Shown here: one piece after another, positions 22,477 through 29,061 of the stretch
How the letters are laid out: each line of letters opens with the position of its first letter
How positions within the stretch are numbered: position 1 is the stretch's first letter
From: Bursaphelenchus xylophilus
Lineage: Eukaryota; Nematoda; Chromadorea; Rhabditida; Aphelenchoididae
NCBI GenBank assembly: GCA_904066235.2
Contig: CAJFCV020000005.1
Coordinates: 5,823,501 to 5,887,500, forward strand
Direction of reading: 5' to 3'
DNA length: 64,000 nt
The notes under the pieces: model-generated
What the model was told of the DNA's origin: nothing
The model's input: the letters and a program-made list of their open reading frames with translations, nothing else
Database searches by the model: none
Made by a program: the position numbers and the translations under genes

Positions 22477-23866
22477 ATGGGAGTCAATCTGTTAAGTGTC
22501 ACTTTGTCTGAAATGTTTTGGATATTATGTTTGCTCCTGGTCTTTAATCCTTCCTCGGCCTTATTCTTTGGTTCGAATTGTGGATGTCAGCCGACTCCAT
22601 GTCCAGCGACTCCCCAATGTCCCTCTCAATGTCCAGTCCCTCCCCCTTGTTCATGTGGTGGGACCCCTCCAAGTAACGCTGTTCCTTCATATCAAGCCAC
22701 TCAGTTTGTGGCCCAATATCCATATCAAACATCTGTCAACTCCCAGCCTGTCCAGGTTAATCCCAGTCCAGTTCAAGTTCAGCCAGTTTTCCCCGCTCAG
22801 GCTTCTTATATCAATCCTCATCCTTATGATAGAATTGCTTCTCGTAGAATATCTGTATCGTCATCTATTTATGCAAATGGCCAAGTTTTCCCATCAGGAC
22901 AGTATAATCAAATCAACGAACCTTACGACCAAAGGGTGGAGCCAGCGAACAGAGAAAATGAAGAATTTGATGGACAACAGTCAACTTATACTGGACAACA
23001 AGCTATCTACGATGGTGAGGAAGGAAGAGTGGCTGACAATGAGGACACAACTATTGCAACGACTGTATATAACACGGAAGGAAGTTATGATCCTACCACC
23101 TCTGACTACAATACAGGTACAACTGCGACGACTTTTGTAATAACTACTACCGAAGTCCCATACCTCAGAGTCAATGACAATGAGTACGATGTAAACACGG
23201 CTACTGCTTCGACTTATCAGACTCCAACTCAAAATTATAGGTCAACCCCTGAAACTCAAGGCTATGAATCCAAACCAGTGCAAGACAATGAGTACGGTAA
23301 GAGTAATGTGAACTCGATTCATGACCACGAATACTCCCCTCCTTCATCCCCAGCCCCACCTAGTCAGGAACCATATGAAGAAGAGGATCACAACTCTAAT
23401 TACATTCCTGAACCTGCACAAATATATCAAGAGACGAATGTAAGTTAGACGAGTAATATTACGACAAAGATTATAGTACTACGAAACCACATCATCATCC
23501 CCAACTGTCGTAACGCCCACCACAATTCCAGCAGGCTTCTTTTCGAAAGAAGAAGACAATGGATACGAAAGTGATGGCAATAGCAACGATAACAACAATA
23601 ATAATATTAACAATATTAACAACGATAACAACAGTAATAATGTCATCCAGCCAGGGTACAAACCCCCGCCTGGTGTTGAATTGGGGATTATAGTTCCTCA
23701 GGACCAAATTGAAGTGACCGCTTCTCCCAAACCAGATTATGATGATGATTACGTGAATCCCGCATTCCTTGGAGAGGCAGTTACTGTTCGGTCCCGTGAC
23801 GAAAACTACAAGACCTTTGGCATTACGTTTTGTCCCATGGCCAAGGAGGATTATATTATTCAGTGA
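22477..23866 (+). CDS. Ground-like secreted protein, 5' part (interrupted by retrotransposon)
   Basis: N-terminal part of a secreted ground-like (grd/grl-type, Hedgehog-related) protein. Exon 1 is 22477-23439 and exon 2 starts at 23477 after a 37-nt intron; phase is kept. The ATG at 22513 (MFWILCLLLVFNPSSA) gives a better signal peptide than 22477. A Cys/Pro-rich segment (CGCQPTPCPATPQCPSQCP) follows, as in many family members, then a long Tyr/Ser/Thr/Asn-rich low-complexity region including a poly-Asn tract. The retrotransposon enters after base 23784. The frame then reads 28 codons into the 5' LTR and stops at 23864-23866, so the present allele would encode a protein without its C-terminal domain. 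Without the element, GEAV continues in frame as TKS at 28481-28488, then splices to the domain exon. Confidence 0.82.
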
Positions 23867-23981
23867 ATGTGTGTGTTACGCTATATATTGCTATTATTGT
23901 TTCTGTAATAAATCTATCTATATTTATTACTCTACATTCGGCTGACTACATATCTTCGCGGATACAAGTGAGGATATAACA
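23785..23981 (+). repeat. 5' LTR (197 bp)
   Basis: Starts TGTTCGGTCCCGTGACG and ends GAGGATATAACA. It contains AATAAA near 23908, a likely polyadenylation signal, and an open frame that extends the disrupted host ORF by 28 codons. It appears identical to the copy at 28279-28475. Confidence 0.95.
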
Positions 23982-23983
23982 AC

Positions 23984-24001
23984 TGGCGCAGTCTACACGA
24001 G
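23984..24001 (+). other. Primer-binding site
   Basis: TGGCGCAGTCTACACGAG lies two bases after the 5' LTR. The initial TGG is expected to pair with the CCA end of a tRNA. The tRNA was not identified. Confidence 0.65.
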
Positions 24002-24163
24002 CAGAAGAAGAATTACGACGTGGAACCAGTTCAGCTCTCCACGACCTTCTACTGCAACTTCGAACCAGGTACTCTTCAATTTTTTGTTCTCGCCTTTAGA
24101 TTCTGAATCTTCCTCGCGGAAAACAGAATTCCTACACCATACAAGGACTGAAGAGAGAACAGA

Positions 24164-27100
24164 ATGGATAAACTCCCGGACCTCCTAACTAAAATGATGG
24201 AGACGATGAAAATTCAAGGAGAATCCATCAAGAATCTTGCTGCGACGATGGAATCCAGCATGAAACTTCCGTCGATCGACCGAACTTCAGCTCTCACCCA
24301 CACGATGTCACTCCTGGGACAGTTCACATACAACCCAGATCAAGACTACACGTTCACGGAATGGTTCGGCCAAAACGAGGCCATCCTGGACGACAACTGC
24401 AAGGATGATGCTGAAAGGAAGAAAATAATCCTGAAAGCACTGGGGAAGGATGAATACGTTCAACTAAAAGGAAGAACTTCGCCGAAGACGCCCGAAGCAA
24501 TGGACTATCAGGAATTACTGAAGATATTGAAAGAAATTTTTGGTTCGACGATGTCCCTCTTCCGGCGCAGACACGAAACCCTGTCCCTCACCCTCCCACC
24601 TGGAAAAACAGCAGATGAGATGCTGAACGAGGCAAATATCAGAGGTGACAAGTTTGAATTCACTGACTTGAATATCAATCAATTCAAGATCTTCCTCGCC
24701 CTTCAATTCATAAAGGACCCCTCTTACAAGAGCATCCGATCCATGATTCTAAAAGCCGTTGACCAGAAGCCGGACATTACCATCGATGAACTGCGAAAAG
24801 TCCTCAAAAGCTTCGAAACACGAATGGAAGACGTGAACCTGGGAAACTCACATGATCCTAGCACCTCATACGAAGTCAACGAGCTACAAAAGTACCACCG
24901 TCGGCCGAAATACACTCCCCGCGGAAAGACGGTTCACAGGAACAAAAACCAGACAGCAAAGTCTGCGGGAGACTACACATGTTACAAATGCAACGGACCC
25001 CATCTGGCAACTTCGTGTCAGAAGACGAACCTATGTTGTGCCTTCTGTAAGAAACAAGGACACAACGAAGCTGCATGCCTCAAGAAGAAGGCCAGACAAT
25101 TCAACAACATTGTGATCAATAATGTTGGCTCTGGAGACAGTCGAGAATACGTTACAGTGGGAATAAACGCAAAAGTGATGGAATTCAGAATCGACAGTGG
25201 CGCCGATATGTCAATAATTGGCCCCGAAAAGTGGAAGGCACTAAACAGACCTCCACTTACACCATTCCACATAACTTGCTCATCCGTCGATGGTTCTCCC
25301 CTCACTGTAAAAGGAAGTTTCAAGGCAAACCTGAAGTATAATGGTCATTCATATACAGATACCATCCTAGTCCTTGCAAAGAAAGACACCGCACTACTCT
25401 GCGGAAAAGCCTCAAAGGAACTTGGAGTAATTACATTCCACAACAAAGAAGAGGCAAATATCAACATCGTCGACTCCTACGCCCAGACGATGGCGGTCCA
25501 GTACACGGACTTATTCAAGGAAGAATTGGGGAAATGCACGAAAATGCAAGTACATCTCCAAGTCAAACCCAATGTCAACCCCGTCCACAAACGCGCAAGA
25601 CCTGTGGCTATTGCCGTTCAAGACCAAGTAAATACAGAACTTGATCGACTGCTGGACAATGGAACTCTGAAGAAAGTAGATACATCAGAATGGGCATCTC
25701 CAATCGTGGTCGCAAAAAAACCTGGAGGCAAAATCCGCCTATGTGCCGACTATTCCACCGGCCTCAACGACGCCCTGGCAGACATTGAACACCCCCTCCC
25801 AAATATGGAGGAGATTTTGTCCAAATTCACGGGCAATACGGTCTTCACTCAATTAGATCTGTCTGACGCTTATCTTCAACTTCCACTCGATGAAGAAAGC
25901 CAACGGTTGACAACAATCAACACTCATCGAGGACTGTTCCAATACACTCGCCTCGTATTTGGTCTAAAACCGGCTCCCGCCATATTTCAACGGACCCTCG
26001 AGCAAGCCCTTTCAGGCATTCCGGGCATACTGATCTACCTCGACGACATACTCGTTATGGCCCCCAATCGTCAACTACACGACGAACGATTACATCAGGT
26101 TCTATTAAAACTTGAAAACTGGGGATTCAGACTTCGTCTGACCAAATGTCATTTCAATGTCCCTGAAGTTACATACCTGGGAATGAAGATCACACCATCT
26201 GGAATACAGGCCGATCCTACTCGAGTCTCCTCCCTCCAGAATATGAGGATCCCCAAGGATCAGAAAGATGTACGATCCCTCCTTGGACTCATAAATTATT
26301 ACGGAAAATTTATTCGAGATCTCCACATTTACAAAGCCCCGCTCGAGCAGCTACTACACAAGGAGAAGATATTCAAATGGACTCCAACACATACACGTGC
26401 CTTTACACAGATCAAGAAGGTCCTGTCCAGTCCGCTACTCCTGGCACACTACGATCCCCGCCAACAACTGATCGTTGCAGCTGACGCCTGCCAATATGGG
26501 ATCGGGGGAGTCCTATTACAACGATACACAGACGGATCAGAGAAGGCAGTCTTCCACATTTCGAAGTCCCTGACCCCCTCTCAACAGAACTACAGCCAAA
26601 TTGAGAAGGAAGCCTTTGCCCTCGTCACTACAGTGGAGCGGCTACACAAGTTCGTCTGGGGACGAAAATTTATACTACAGACGGATCACAGACCCTTACT
26701 CACCCTCCTAAATCCCTCAAATACAAAAGGACTGAGTGACCGAACCGCGGCAAGACTCAGGAGATGGGCGTTACGTCTTATTGGATATGACTTCACCATA
26801 GAGTACATCAAAACCGATCAATTCGGTCAAGCCGATTGTCTCTCCAGACTGATCCAAGCAGCTCGATCAGATGAGGACCCAGAACTCGAGACGGTCATCG
26901 CCTCCTTCGAAGTCCTGGAAAGGGAAATCAATGAAGTCATCACTGAAAATTTGAGTACGTACACCACTCAATCGGAGTTCATCCAGGCGACGAAAGCCGA
27001 CCCCCTGTTCCAAACCCTCATACAACGAATTTCGAAGGGATGGAAAACCTCCGACAAAGATGATCCGCTGCTAAGACCTTACGTTCTAATCAAAGATTCC

Positions 27101-28258
27101 CTATCAGAAGTCAAAGGAATCCTACTCTACGATGACAGAGTGATGATCCCAAAAGCTTACAGGAAAAAGGTTATCGAAAAATTACACCAAGCCCACCCAG
27201 GAATTACACGAATGAAGAAATTGGCACGAAGCCATTTCTACTGGCCTCAAATGGGCAAGGATATCGAGATGGCGGTTAAAGGTTGTCAACATTGCATCGA
27301 CACCGCCAATACACCCCGCAAAATCCCACTCCAACCTTGGCCAGAAACCCAAAAACCATGGTCTAGGATTCATCTCGATTTCGCCGAACCTAAGAAAGGT
27401 CATCAATTCCTTATTGTCGTTGACAGTTATTCCAAACTCCTGGACGCGCACTGGATGAACCCTGCGGACTCCAAAAATTTGATCGCCTACTTACACATCC
27501 TGTTCCGACACTTTGGAGCCCCGGAAACTCTTGTCACAGATAACGGAGGACAGTTTATTTCCGAAGAGTTCGCCAAATTCTGTCAAGACCTCCAGATCGT
27601 CCACCTCAAAAGCGCACCCAGGATGCCTCAAAGCAATGGCCACGCTGAAAGATCAGTCCAGACACTGAAGAAATCGTTGGAAGCCAACAAATCTTCCCTC
27701 GATACAGCGGTACTTACGTACAATTACACCCCCAATGAAGCTCTTGATGGACGAACCCCCAACGAAGTCTTCTTTGGACGCCAACTCCGTACACCCTTTG
27801 ATGTTTTCAAACCAAACTCACCTCACTTCCCAAATATGGACAAATCCGATGACATTACACAGCTAAATCGGTCCCAGAAGATCATGAAGAAGAAATTCGA
27901 TAGCCACCATGGAGCCAGGCCTCGATTCTTTACAAAGGGAGAGATGGTGACGATACAACTCGTTACTGGTAAACGAGTCACTGGGAAACTCATTCAGTTC
28001 TTGGGGAAGACTATGGCAAAAGTTCAAGTGCAGGACCAAGTACACACTCGCCACTTCAACCAAATCTGGAAGCGGTTCCCTTACGAGTACGATACGATGG
28101 TGGAAGAAGAGAATAATACACCCCCGGTTGTTCCGAACCGATCTAATGGACCTGACGCACCTCCTACCGTTGCCCGGCGAATACAGCCCAGCCGAAACGC
28201 CAAGAAGCCCTTGGACTATCAACAGCTCTCCGGCCGTCGTCAAAAAGCCAAGCAATGA
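24164..28258 (+). CDS. Gag-Pol polyprotein of the Ty3/gypsy retrotransposon
   Basis: Single uninterrupted 1364-residue frame, so no frameshift is needed between Gag and Pol. Residues 1-270 are capsid-like Gag. Two CCHC zinc knuckles lie at about 273-305 (CYKCNGPHLATSC and CAFCKKQGHNEAAC). The aspartic protease active site DSGADMSIIG is at about 344. Reverse transcriptase follows with QLDLSDAYLQLPL and the catalytic YLDD at about 625. RNase H shows ADACQYGIGG near 772 and TDHRPLL. Integrase has an HHCC zinc domain from about 1007, then LDF, TDNGGQF (about 1125) and the catalytic Glu in NGHAERS (about 1162). All expected catalytic residues are present. No envelope frame follows. The intact frame and matched LTRs suggest an element that is, or recently was, competent for transposition. 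Confidence 0.96.
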   Translation: MDKLPDLLTKMMETMKIQGESIKNLAATMESSMKLPSIDRTSALTHTMSLLGQFTYNPDQDYTFTEWFGQNEAILDDNCKDDAERKKIILKALGKDEYVQLKGRTSPKTPEAMDYQELLKILKEIFGSTMSLFRRRHETLSLTLPPGKTADEMLNEANIRGDKFEFTDLNINQFKIFLALQFIKDPSYKSIRSMILKAVDQKPDITIDELRKVLKSFETRMEDVNLGNSHDPSTSYEVNELQKYHRRPKYTPRGKTVHRNKNQTAKSAGDYTCYKCNGPHLATSCQKTNLCCAFCKKQGHNEAACLKKKARQFNNIVINNVGSGDSREYVTVGINAKVMEFRIDSGADMSIIGPEKWKALNRPPLTPFHITCSSVDGSPLTVKGSFKANLKYNGHSYTDTILVLAKKDTALLCGKASKELGVITFHNKEEANINIVDSYAQTMAVQYTDLFKEELGKCTKMQVHLQVKPNVNPVHKRARPVAIAVQDQVNTELDRLLDNGTLKKVDTSEWASPIVVAKKPGGKIRLCADYSTGLNDALADIEHPLPNMEEILSKFTGNTVFTQLDLSDAYLQLPLDEESQRLTTINTHRGLFQYTRLVFGLKPAPAIFQRTLEQALSGIPGILIYLDDILVMAPNRQLHDERLHQVLLKLENWGFRLRLTKCHFNVPEVTYLGMKITPSGIQADPTRVSSLQNMRIPKDQKDVRSLLGLINYYGKFIRDLHIYKAPLEQLLHKEKIFKWTPTHTRAFTQIKKVLSSPLLLAHYDPRQQLIVAADACQYGIGGVLLQRYTDGSEKAVFHISKSLTPSQQNYSQIEKEAFALVTTVERLHKFVWGRKFILQTDHRPLLTLLNPSNTKGLSDRTAARLRRWALRLIGYDFTIEYIKTDQFGQADCLSRLIQAARSDEDPELETVIASFEVLEREINEVITENLSTYTTQSEFIQATKADPLFQTLIQRISKGWKTSDKDDPLLRPYVLIKDSLSEVKGILLYDDRVMIPKAYRKKVIEKLHQAHPGITRMKKLARSHFYWPQMGKDIEMAVKGCQHCIDTANTPRKIPLQPWPETQKPWSRIHLDFAEPKKGHQFLIVVDSYSKLLDAHWMNPADSKNLIAYLHILFRHFGAPETLVTDNGGQFISEEFAKFCQDLQIVHLKSAPRMPQSNGHAERSVQTLKKSLEANKSSLDTAVLTYNYTPNEALDGRTPNEVFFGRQLRTPFDVFKPNSPHFPNMDKSDDITQLNRSQKIMKKKFDSHHGARPRFFTKGEMVTIQLVTGKRVTGKLIQFLGKTMAKVQVQDQVHTRHFNQIWKRFPYEYDTMVEEENNTPPVVPNRSNGPDAPPTVARRIQPSRNAKKPLDYQQLSGRRQKAKQ

Positions 28259-28269
28259 TCCTTTTCCAC

Positions 28270-28278
28270 AAAGGGAGA
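28270..28278 (+). other. Polypurine tract
   Basis: AAAGGGAGA lies immediately before the 3' LTR, the expected plus-strand primer position. Confidence 0.75.
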
Positions 28279-28475
28279 TGTTCGGTCCCGTGACGAAAAC
28301 TACAAGACCTTTGGCATTACGTTTTGTCCCATGGCCAAGGAGGATTATATTATTCAGTGAATGTGTGTGTTACGCTATATATTGCTATTATTGTTTCTGT
28401 AATAAATCTATCTATATTTATTACTCTACATTCGGCTGACTACATATCTTCGCGGATACAAGTGAGGATATAACA
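28279..28475 (+). repeat. 3' LTR (197 bp)
   Basis: Same sequence as 23785-23981 by direct comparison; followed by the GTTAC target duplication at 28476-28480. Confidence 0.95.
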
Positions 28476-28480
28476 GTTAC

Positions 28481-29061
28481 CAAAAGCAGTAAGTGCAACC
28501 CTGAGAAATAAAGTTCGGACACTTTGCACCCTTTTTTTTGTGTTTCTCGCTGCAATTTCCCATGTTTTTCACTTGTGCCATGCACCTTTTCGCGAGGCAG
28601 CCCCAATTTTCAATCACGACGTCGGCGATATACTTTTTCCGAATTTTATTCCTCGAGGATATACAACACTATAGTAGCGTTTAGAAGTTAATACTGCTTG
28701 CTCGTCGATTTTTCTTAGAACTTATTGTTTTATGGTCGTATTTATAGTTCCAAAGCCCATCCGGAGTATCCAGGAGCATCAAAGACGGAAGAGATCTTTG
28801 AATGACGTCAGATGTAATCACAGCAAGATACGATCGTTAATCAAAAAGGTTGGTTTTATGCAGTCCAAAATATGTCTGCTCCAGATTGATACGCAAAATC
28901 CTCGTAACGGAATTAAAATGTTGAAAAGAGACATCACCAGACATCTTGGTCTTCCTGTAAATGTGGTATGTTCAATCTCTGAGATCGTGTTTGATGTTAG
29001 CACTGACACTTACTGCCAATATTCCGTAAACAACTTGCATTGCCTTGTATTCCTACGATGA
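28481..29061 (+). CDS. Ground-like domain, 3' part of the interrupted gene
   Basis: Continuation of the gene that starts at 22477. The last 8 nt of exon 2 (28481-28488) precede a GTAAGT donor, and the next exon starts at 28748 in matching phase. It encodes the C-terminal ground-like domain: basic linker QRRKR, DVRCNHSKIRSLIKK, DITRHLGLPVNVVCSISE and a terminal TYCQYSVNNLHCLVF, which fits the conserved Cys pattern of the family. A 36-nt stretch (28849-28884) has GT...AG ends, keeps frame and may be a tiny intron; removing it brings spacing closer to other family members. With the element absent the whole protein would be about 518-530 residues. As it stands this part is separated from its signal peptide by 4.7 kb. 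Confidence 0.8.

What the first reader, a model, noticed from the sequence alone, without database searches (positions are those of the whole stretch)
22477..29061. Very recent Ty3/gypsy insertion breaks a ground-like gene
The 197-bp LTRs appear identical, the GTTAC duplication is exact and Gag-Pol is intact. Removing 23785-28475 plus one GTTAC restores an open host frame across the site (GEAV then TKS), a GTAAGT donor 8 nt further on, and a phase-matched exon with a full ground-like domain. This allele therefore looks like a fresh loss-of-function, possibly polymorphic in the species.
Basis: partly seen in the sequence, partly recalled or inferred. Interest (0 to 1): 0.75.

Follow-up and report, generated by a model that had tools for sequence, protein, structure and literature searches.

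The report
Young retrotransposon splitting a ground-like gene
In the sequenced strain of the pine wood nematode, a young mobile element whose closest known relatives are in a predatory mite sits inside a gene for a probably secreted nematode protein and cuts off its conserved end; such insertions are ordinary in kind, but this one is probably missing in other strains.

Summary
A 4,691-bp LTR retrotransposon (23785-28475) has identical 197-bp LTRs, an exact GTTAC duplication and one open Gag-Pol frame, and lies in exon 2 of a ground-like gene. Codon phase, donor and acceptor around it fit one gene. Public models show the break: a 450-aa protein ending in 26 LTR-coded residues, and a separate 97-aa ground-like fragment.

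LTR identity alone dates the insertion weakly. The element body is a better clock: one substitution private to this copy in 4,691 bp, against about 25 expected at average Ka4C1-T4 divergence. So it is young and probably polymorphic, but no other isolate could be examined. Gag-Pol is open yet lacks 36 bp that the four siblings covering that place have. Loss of function is likely, not shown; a possible cryptic in-frame donor exists.

Its protein groups with elements of the mite Galendromus (60% identity), not with nematode ones (41-46%); forcing it among nematodes costs far more likelihood than holding nematodes together without it. An arthropod-derived recent invader is plausible; donor and direction are open.

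The parts
22477..23439 (+). Exon 1 of the host gene: ATG, hydrophobic N-terminus, Cys/Pro-rich stretch, then low-complexity region (321 codons, phase 0)
   Evidence: Model P0001 matches 100% over 321 aa; no Pfam domain
23440..23476 (+). Host intron 1, 37 nt, GTAAGT...TATAG
   Evidence: Junction used by deposited model P0001
23477..23784 (+). Exon 2, host part, up to and including the left TSD copy
   Evidence: Open frame, phase 2 at the insertion point
23780..23784 (+). Left copy of target-site duplication GTTAC
23785..23981 (+). 5' LTR (TG...CA), holds the in-frame stop and an AATAAA signal at 23907
   Evidence: 197/197 identical to the 3' LTR
23785..23866 (+). LTR-coded tail of the truncated host reading frame: 26 wholly LTR-coded residues, then stop (23864-23866)
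   Evidence: same tail in deposited model P0001
23984..23993 (+). Primer binding site core, 10 nt, complementary to the 3' end of tRNA-Ser(AGA); starts 2 nt after the LTR
   Evidence: tRNA-Ser(aga) called by ARAGORN at 2 of 2 genomic loci tried; the 10-nt figure leaves out one base that ARAGORN adds past the acceptor stem (my reading)
24164..28258 (+). Gag-Pol open reading frame, 1364 aa
   Evidence: Pfam DUF7083, RVT_1, RT_RNaseH(_2), Integrase_H2C2, rve above cut-off; protease hits weak
28123..28127 (+). Junction of a 36-bp in-frame deletion private to this copy (C-terminal tail of Gag-Pol)
   Evidence: The 36 bp are present in all 4 other copies that cover this place
28270..28278 (+). Polypurine tract next to the 3' LTR
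   Evidence: read from sequence
28279..28475 (+). 3' LTR
28476..28480 (+). Right copy of target-site duplication GTTAC
28481..28488 (+). Last 8 host bases of exon 2, followed by a GTAAGT donor at 28489
28489..28747 (+). Host intron 2, 259 nt, GTAAGT...TATAG (predicted)
   Evidence: phase match; inference, no transcript seen
28748..28848 (+). Exon 3, start of the ground-like domain
28849..28884 (+). Host intron 3, 36 nt, GTTGGT...CAG, inside the ground-like domain
   Evidence: absent from model P0002; Pfam score 46.9 bits there against 43 for the unspliced frame
28885..29061 (+). Exon 4: rest of the ground-like domain and stop

Best explanation
A young, possibly still mobile Ty3/gypsy-type LTR retrotransposon integrated in sense orientation into exon 2 of a ground-like (hedgehog-related) gene, 8 nt before its splice donor. 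Shown: element anatomy, TSD, frame and phase arithmetic, split public gene models, one private substitution in 4.7 kb. Inferred: host transcripts read into the 5' LTR, stop after 26 LTR-coded residues and probably end at the LTR poly(A) signal, so the product loses its conserved C-terminal domain; the allele is a null or strong loss of function and is absent from many other strains. The family appears to have amplified lately in this lineage and may have come from outside nematodes.
For: Identical LTRs and exact TSD. The 4 of 4 copies with two whole LTRs have 0 differences within the pair. Of six sibling loci, four have a matching 5-bp TSD, one does not, one is truncated. Window copy: 1 private substitution (27413; the 4 other copies covering it agree with each other) and one private 36-bp deletion; 25 substitutions expected at Ka4C1-T4 divergence, P 3.6e-10 (SNP counts from PMC4619224 Table 2, section read). 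Phase 2 plus 8 nt gives phase 1, as the acceptor requires. Deposited models P0001 and P0002 are the two halves. [quoted passage not shown] Another LTR element of this species is present in 4 of 6 strains (PMC5177903 section 7).
Against: No transcript or second isolate was seen. The 5' exons have no homologue found (only P0001; only the locus itself), so their link to the ground-like exons rests on phase and layout. Gene conversion between copies, or short-read polishing of near-identical repeats, could also keep copies alike. A phase-1 GTAATA at 23634 could splice to 28748 and skip the element in frame.
Confidence: 0.82

Rival explanations
1. The insertion is real, but the gene still works: the element is removed as part of a long intron by a cryptic donor in exon 2, so the allele is mild.
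For: Three GT sites in exon 2 upstream of the insertion have the phase that 28748 needs; 23634 ACA|GTAATA looks best (by eye). Ground-like exons and their splice sites show no decay.
Against: The site is not a strong consensus donor, the in-LTR stop and AATAAA come first, and the deposited model P0001 reads into the LTR. Lack of decay is equally expected if the insertion is young.
Confidence: 0.13
2. The 5' exons and the ground-like exons belong to two genes; the element fell into the last exon of the first.
For: No homologue ties the halves together; public models have them as separate proteins.
Against: Phase match and a consensus donor 8 nt after the TSD; the second model starts at an ATG inside the predicted intron and shows no obvious signal peptide (by eye), though these products are predicted to be secreted (PMC1636047, passages).
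Confidence: 0.1
3. The element is old and fixed, and looks young because of gene conversion or assembly polishing among near-identical copies.
For: The assembly is Nanopore polished with short reads (PMC7561696, whole text), which can blur near-identical copies.
Against: Copies keep differences of their own: 8/197 in one LTR pair, 3/197 in another, a 36-bp deletion here; host exons are undecayed; each tested copy has its own flanks.
Confidence: 0.06

Closest known systems
Gag-Pol proteins of Galendromus occidentalis (P0004, P0005 'K02A2.6-like', P0007 'LOC100905937')
   Same: Same RT, RNase H and integrase domains; 60% identity over 86-95% of residues 440-1240
   Different: Host is a predatory mite; 40% of residues differ, so it is not the direct source
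Ty3/gypsy-type Gag-Pol proteins of other nematodes (Nippostrongylus, Haemonchus, Caenorhabditis, Meloidogyne, Globodera and others)
   Same: Same domain architecture
   Different: 41-46% identity in the 16 rows used; holding the window element with them is far less likely
eBxnv-1-bearing Bel/Pao LTR element of B. xylophilus (PMC5177903)
   Same: LTR element of the same species, LTRs fully conserved over 132 nt, present in some strains only (4 of 6)
   Different: Bel/Pao, degenerate, carries a nodavirus-like gene; no host exon is mentioned in the parts read (passages and section 7)
C. elegans grl genes (PMC1636047, passages)
   Same: C-terminal ground-like domain after a variable repetitive region
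   Different: Here the allele in the assembly is split by a retrotransposon

Membership tests
Ty3/gypsy LTR retrotransposon (Metaviridae) | Flanking LTRs starting TG, ending CA, with short TSD | tested here: met
Ty3/gypsy LTR retrotransposon (Metaviridae) | pol order RT, RNase H, integrase | tested here: met
   RVT_1 518-676, RNase H 739-875, H2C2 995-1045, rve 1067-1154
Ty3/gypsy LTR retrotransposon (Metaviridae) | Aspartic protease upstream of RT | tested here: inconclusive
   Three protease models at residues 326-405, E 0.007-0.11, all below their cut-offs
Ty3/gypsy LTR retrotransposon (Metaviridae) | PBS and PPT | tested here: met
   10-nt match to the tRNA-Ser(AGA) 3' end, shorter than a typical PBS; purine tract before the 3' LTR
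K02A2.6-like lineage (the label Mag is recalled) | Tree placement among proteins named K02A2.6-like | tested here: met
   no reference Mag sequence was compared, so the Mag label itself is untested
Ground-like (grl) genes | PF04155 domain at the C-terminus | tested here: met
   46.9 bits in P0002 (cut-off 35.4), ends 2 residues before the protein's end
Ground-like (grl) genes | Signal peptide | not testable with these tools
   Hydrophobic N-terminus seen by eye only
Polymorphic TE insertion | Filled and empty sites both present in the species | not testable with these tools
   Only this assembly is held; the protein database gave only the broken halves
Horizontal transfer of a TE | Phylogeny in conflict with host phylogeny, well supported | tested here: met
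   Mite+window clade 100/99. Cost in log-likelihood: nematode rows alone 12.7 (not rejected, p 0.095); with window and L076/L077 345.6; window with each of four nematode subgroups 278-324. One of those four gave p-AU 0.582 in spite of a cost of 317
Horizontal transfer of a TE | Divergence lower than vertical descent allows, or absence in sister species | tested here: inconclusive
   60% identity is not high; no other Bursaphelenchus is named among the 120 listed hits, but other Bursaphelenchus genomes could not be searched

The most novel reading that the evidence does not exclude
The element belongs to a lineage that crossed from arthropods (mites, or an unsampled associate) into the pine wood nematode and is now in an early burst: seven loci found, no older copies of its own pol found, one of which has lately broken a host gene in the sequenced strain.
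Probability: 0.4. Interest if true: 0.65.

Novelty: new member of a known kind. Interest (0 to 1): 0.42.

Why it matters
Public gene models of an important forest pathogen carry two broken halves of what looks like one gene; gene lists built from this strain will miss or misread it. If polymorphic, the insertion is a ready natural knockout for a ground-like gene and a marker of recent retrotransposon activity. The mite-like affinity makes a cross-phylum transfer testable in a system where nematode, beetle and mites meet (recalled; one search listed papers on mites with these beetles, seen as listing only).

Tried and rejected
LTR identity as sole clock: rejected, since 0 differences in 197 bp has P 0.12 at Ka4C1-T4 divergence and 0.01 at Ka4C1-C14-5 divergence. 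Skipping exon 2 to rescue the gene: rejected, exon 1 ends in phase 0 and the frame of 28748 then meets a stop after 17 codons. Linking the 5' exons to other ground-like genes by their N-terminus: one search found only the locus itself; a motif scan of 18 of the 28 ground-like loci printed none, but those loci reach only about 1.5 kb either side and the scan had no positive control. Nesting of the window element inside the mite rows: the best tree shows it (96/86), but the three mite rows as one clade is not rejected, p-AU 0.357, so direction is not claimed. The AU p values are not to be leaned on: groups were named after the tree was seen, and at costs of 120-350 log-likelihood units p ran from 1e-161 to 0.582; I go by the costs and the control. 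Against a special case: two other elements of this genome (L076, L077) join pseudoscorpion rows in the same tree (98/99, long branches), so arthropod-nematode mixing may be common or old in this group. One search was an ill-chosen pattern and is not used. One search (a recalled tRNA pattern) found nothing; one search replaced it. One search printed a complementarity of 4 nt because of one extra 3' base in the ARAGORN call; leaving it out I read 10 nt here and 27 nt in the C1:5.85 Mb copy.

P0029 was taken as a nematode from a name cut off in the listing.

Full report
Where it is. The window lies in a 78,253,340-bp genome of 8 contigs at C5:5823501-5887500. The only protein hit of the 5' exon is named Bursaphelenchus xylophilus and lies on a contig of 12,633,386 bases, the length of C5. 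Contig lengths (15,101,617; 12,794,883; 12,140,115) agree with the maximum, N50 and N90 of the v5 Ka4C1 assembly in PMC7561696 (whole text read), which counts 11 scaffolds.

The element. LTRs of 197 bp are identical, flanked by GTTAC. After the 5' LTR come 2 nt and a primer site whose first 10 nt match the 3' end of tRNA-Ser(AGA); ARAGORN calls that tRNA in 2 of 2 loci tried. A purine tract precedes the 3' LTR. One frame encodes Gag-Pol of 1364 aa. In its translation I read one canonical CX2CX4HX4C zinc knuckle and a variant before it, one residue shorter (by eye). There is no room for env: 20 bases separate the stop from the 3' LTR.

The family. A search with the LTR gave 28 matches, 11 of full length at 96-100%; a search with RT DNA gave 5; the tool calls such counts lower bounds. 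Read together: full-length at C5 (this one), C1:13838086-13842812 and C6:9184056-9188780; internally deleted at C4:2477119 and C1:5854049; 5'-truncated at C5:3937 kb; solo LTR at C1:8869080. LTR pairs differ at 0 sites in 4 of 4 copies that have two whole LTRs. Of the six loci other than the window's, four show an exact 5-bp TSD; C1:5854049 does not and the truncated one cannot. The C6 frame is broken by two single-base deletions, both in runs of one base, where long-read errors are common, so that copy's state is uncertain. RT protein search of the genome (23 matches) shows nothing between this family (89-100%) and other families (at most 43%): no older relatives of its own pol were found. 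LTR-only relatives at 73-84% do exist.

Age. The window copy has one private substitution and one private 36-bp deletion; the four other copies covering these places agree with each other on both. PMC4619224 Table 2 (section read) lists SNP positions against Ka4C1: 795,391 for T4 up to 1,754,649 for C14-5. Over 74.6 Mb that is 1.07% to 2.35%. A copy resident for the average Ka4C1-T4 coalescence should have about 25 private substitutions in 4,691 bp; 1 is seen (P 3.6e-10); at C14-5 divergence 55. The LTR pair alone gives P 0.12 and 0.01. With a mutation rate recalled for C. elegans (2.7e-9 per site and generation) the one-sided 95% bound is some 375,000 generations: young in evolutionary terms, but nothing here says decades. 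So the insertion is expected to be absent from many strains. A precedent exists: the eBxnv-1 LTR element is present in 4 of 6 strains and not detected in OKD1-F7 and C14-5 (PMC5177903 section 7).

The host gene. Exon 1 (22477-23439) and exon 2 join across a 37-nt intron in the deposited model P0001, 450 aa, which then runs through the insertion point and ends in 26 LTR-coded residues. The ground-like exons appear as another model, P0002, 97 aa, which starts at an ATG inside the predicted intron and drops a further 36-nt intron. No longer, unbroken model was returned: one search gave 1 hit from 967 candidates and one search gave 1 from 3, with candidate lengths limited to 0.55-1.75 times the query. 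By coordinates, phase 2 at the insertion plus 8 nt gives phase 1, which the acceptor before 28748 needs. This is one of 28 PF04155 matches in the genome, 23 of them over the cut-off, so paralogues may buffer a loss. [quoted passage not shown]

What it does to the gene. Most likely the mRNA reads into the LTR, stops, and is polyadenylated there (AATAAA at 23907), which yields a protein without its conserved domain. That is inference; the only expression-linked hint is the shape of model P0001, and I do not know whether RNA data shaped it. A rescue route exists on paper: a phase-1 GTAATA at 23634.

Relatives. Gag-Pol residues 440-1240 gave 1,079 hits, 120 listed. After the window's own product (P0003), the best named rows are three proteins of the mite Galendromus occidentalis (60%); the 16 rows taken as nematodes show 41-46%, like flies and flukes. 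In the 68-row tree and the 35-row careful tree the window element joins the mite rows (100/99 in the careful tree), next to P0004 (96/86); two other elements of the same genome (L076, L077) fall elsewhere, next to pseudoscorpion rows. Holding the 12 nematode rows together without the window costs 12.7 log-likelihood units and is not rejected (p 0.095); with the window and L076/L077 it costs 345.6; the window with each of four nematode subgroups costs 278-324, with p-AU 1e-5, 0.582, 2e-75 and 2e-4; the window with L076 and L077 alone costs 123. The 0.582 goes against the others and shows the p values are unstable at such costs. A mite-only clade is not rejected (0.357). The window differs from each mite protein about as much as these differ from one another (59.8-63.4% identity). 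Horizontal descent from an arthropod source is thus plausible; long-term vertical descent with losses is not excluded, and six rows without an organism name sit in or next to this clade. I saw no report of this transfer or this insertion in the listings (titles and starts of abstracts, some capped), which cover open-licence papers only. PMC11118728 (passages) reports recent Gypsy and Pao activity in B. xylophilus in general.

Verdict. Added here are the better clock, the 36-bp private deletion, the split public gene models, the extra intron, and the mite affinity.

Noticed in passing
window:24164-28258 (Gag-Pol): Closest named relatives are from the mite Galendromus occidentalis (60%), not nematodes; the trees agree.
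   Followed up: partly
L075:3050-4716 (C1:5854049-5855715): Internally deleted relative whose two LTRs are identical to each other but differ at 8/197 from the window's, while 1,060 bp of its body is 99.9% identical; its primer site matches tRNA-Ser over about 27 nt instead of 10, so it may have captured tRNA sequence. Its flanks lack a matching TSD and an 83% similar LTR piece lies 3 bp downstream.
   Followed up: partly
L072:2120-4155 (C4:2477119-2479154): Copy with a deletion from RT to near the end of the 3' LTR, yet with an intact TSD and 2000/2000 bases identical to the window copy.
   Followed up: no
L020-L029: A related LTR family, 81-84% mostly over LTR bases 69-197; one same-strand pair lies about 1.6 kb apart on C6 and one opposite-strand pair about 1.2 kb apart on C3: possibly short non-autonomous elements.
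   Followed up: no
C6:8.1-12.2 Mb: 16 of 18 matches of a tRNA-Ser 3'-end pattern lie on C6, 15 of them beyond 8.1 Mb; at least one there, at 10.10 Mb, lies next to an LTR relative and may be a primer site rather than a tRNA gene.
   Followed up: no
L076, L077 (C6:11447447, C4:8988314): Two other gypsy-type elements of this genome join pseudoscorpion rows in the tree (98/99, long branches), a second arthropod-nematode mix.
   Followed up: no
PMC3164644 Table 7: A B. xylophilus protein (116.149), with secreted ground-like proteins as other matches, is listed there as an effector candidate by similarity to a Meloidogyne gene; whether it is this gene was not determined (passage).
   Followed up: no
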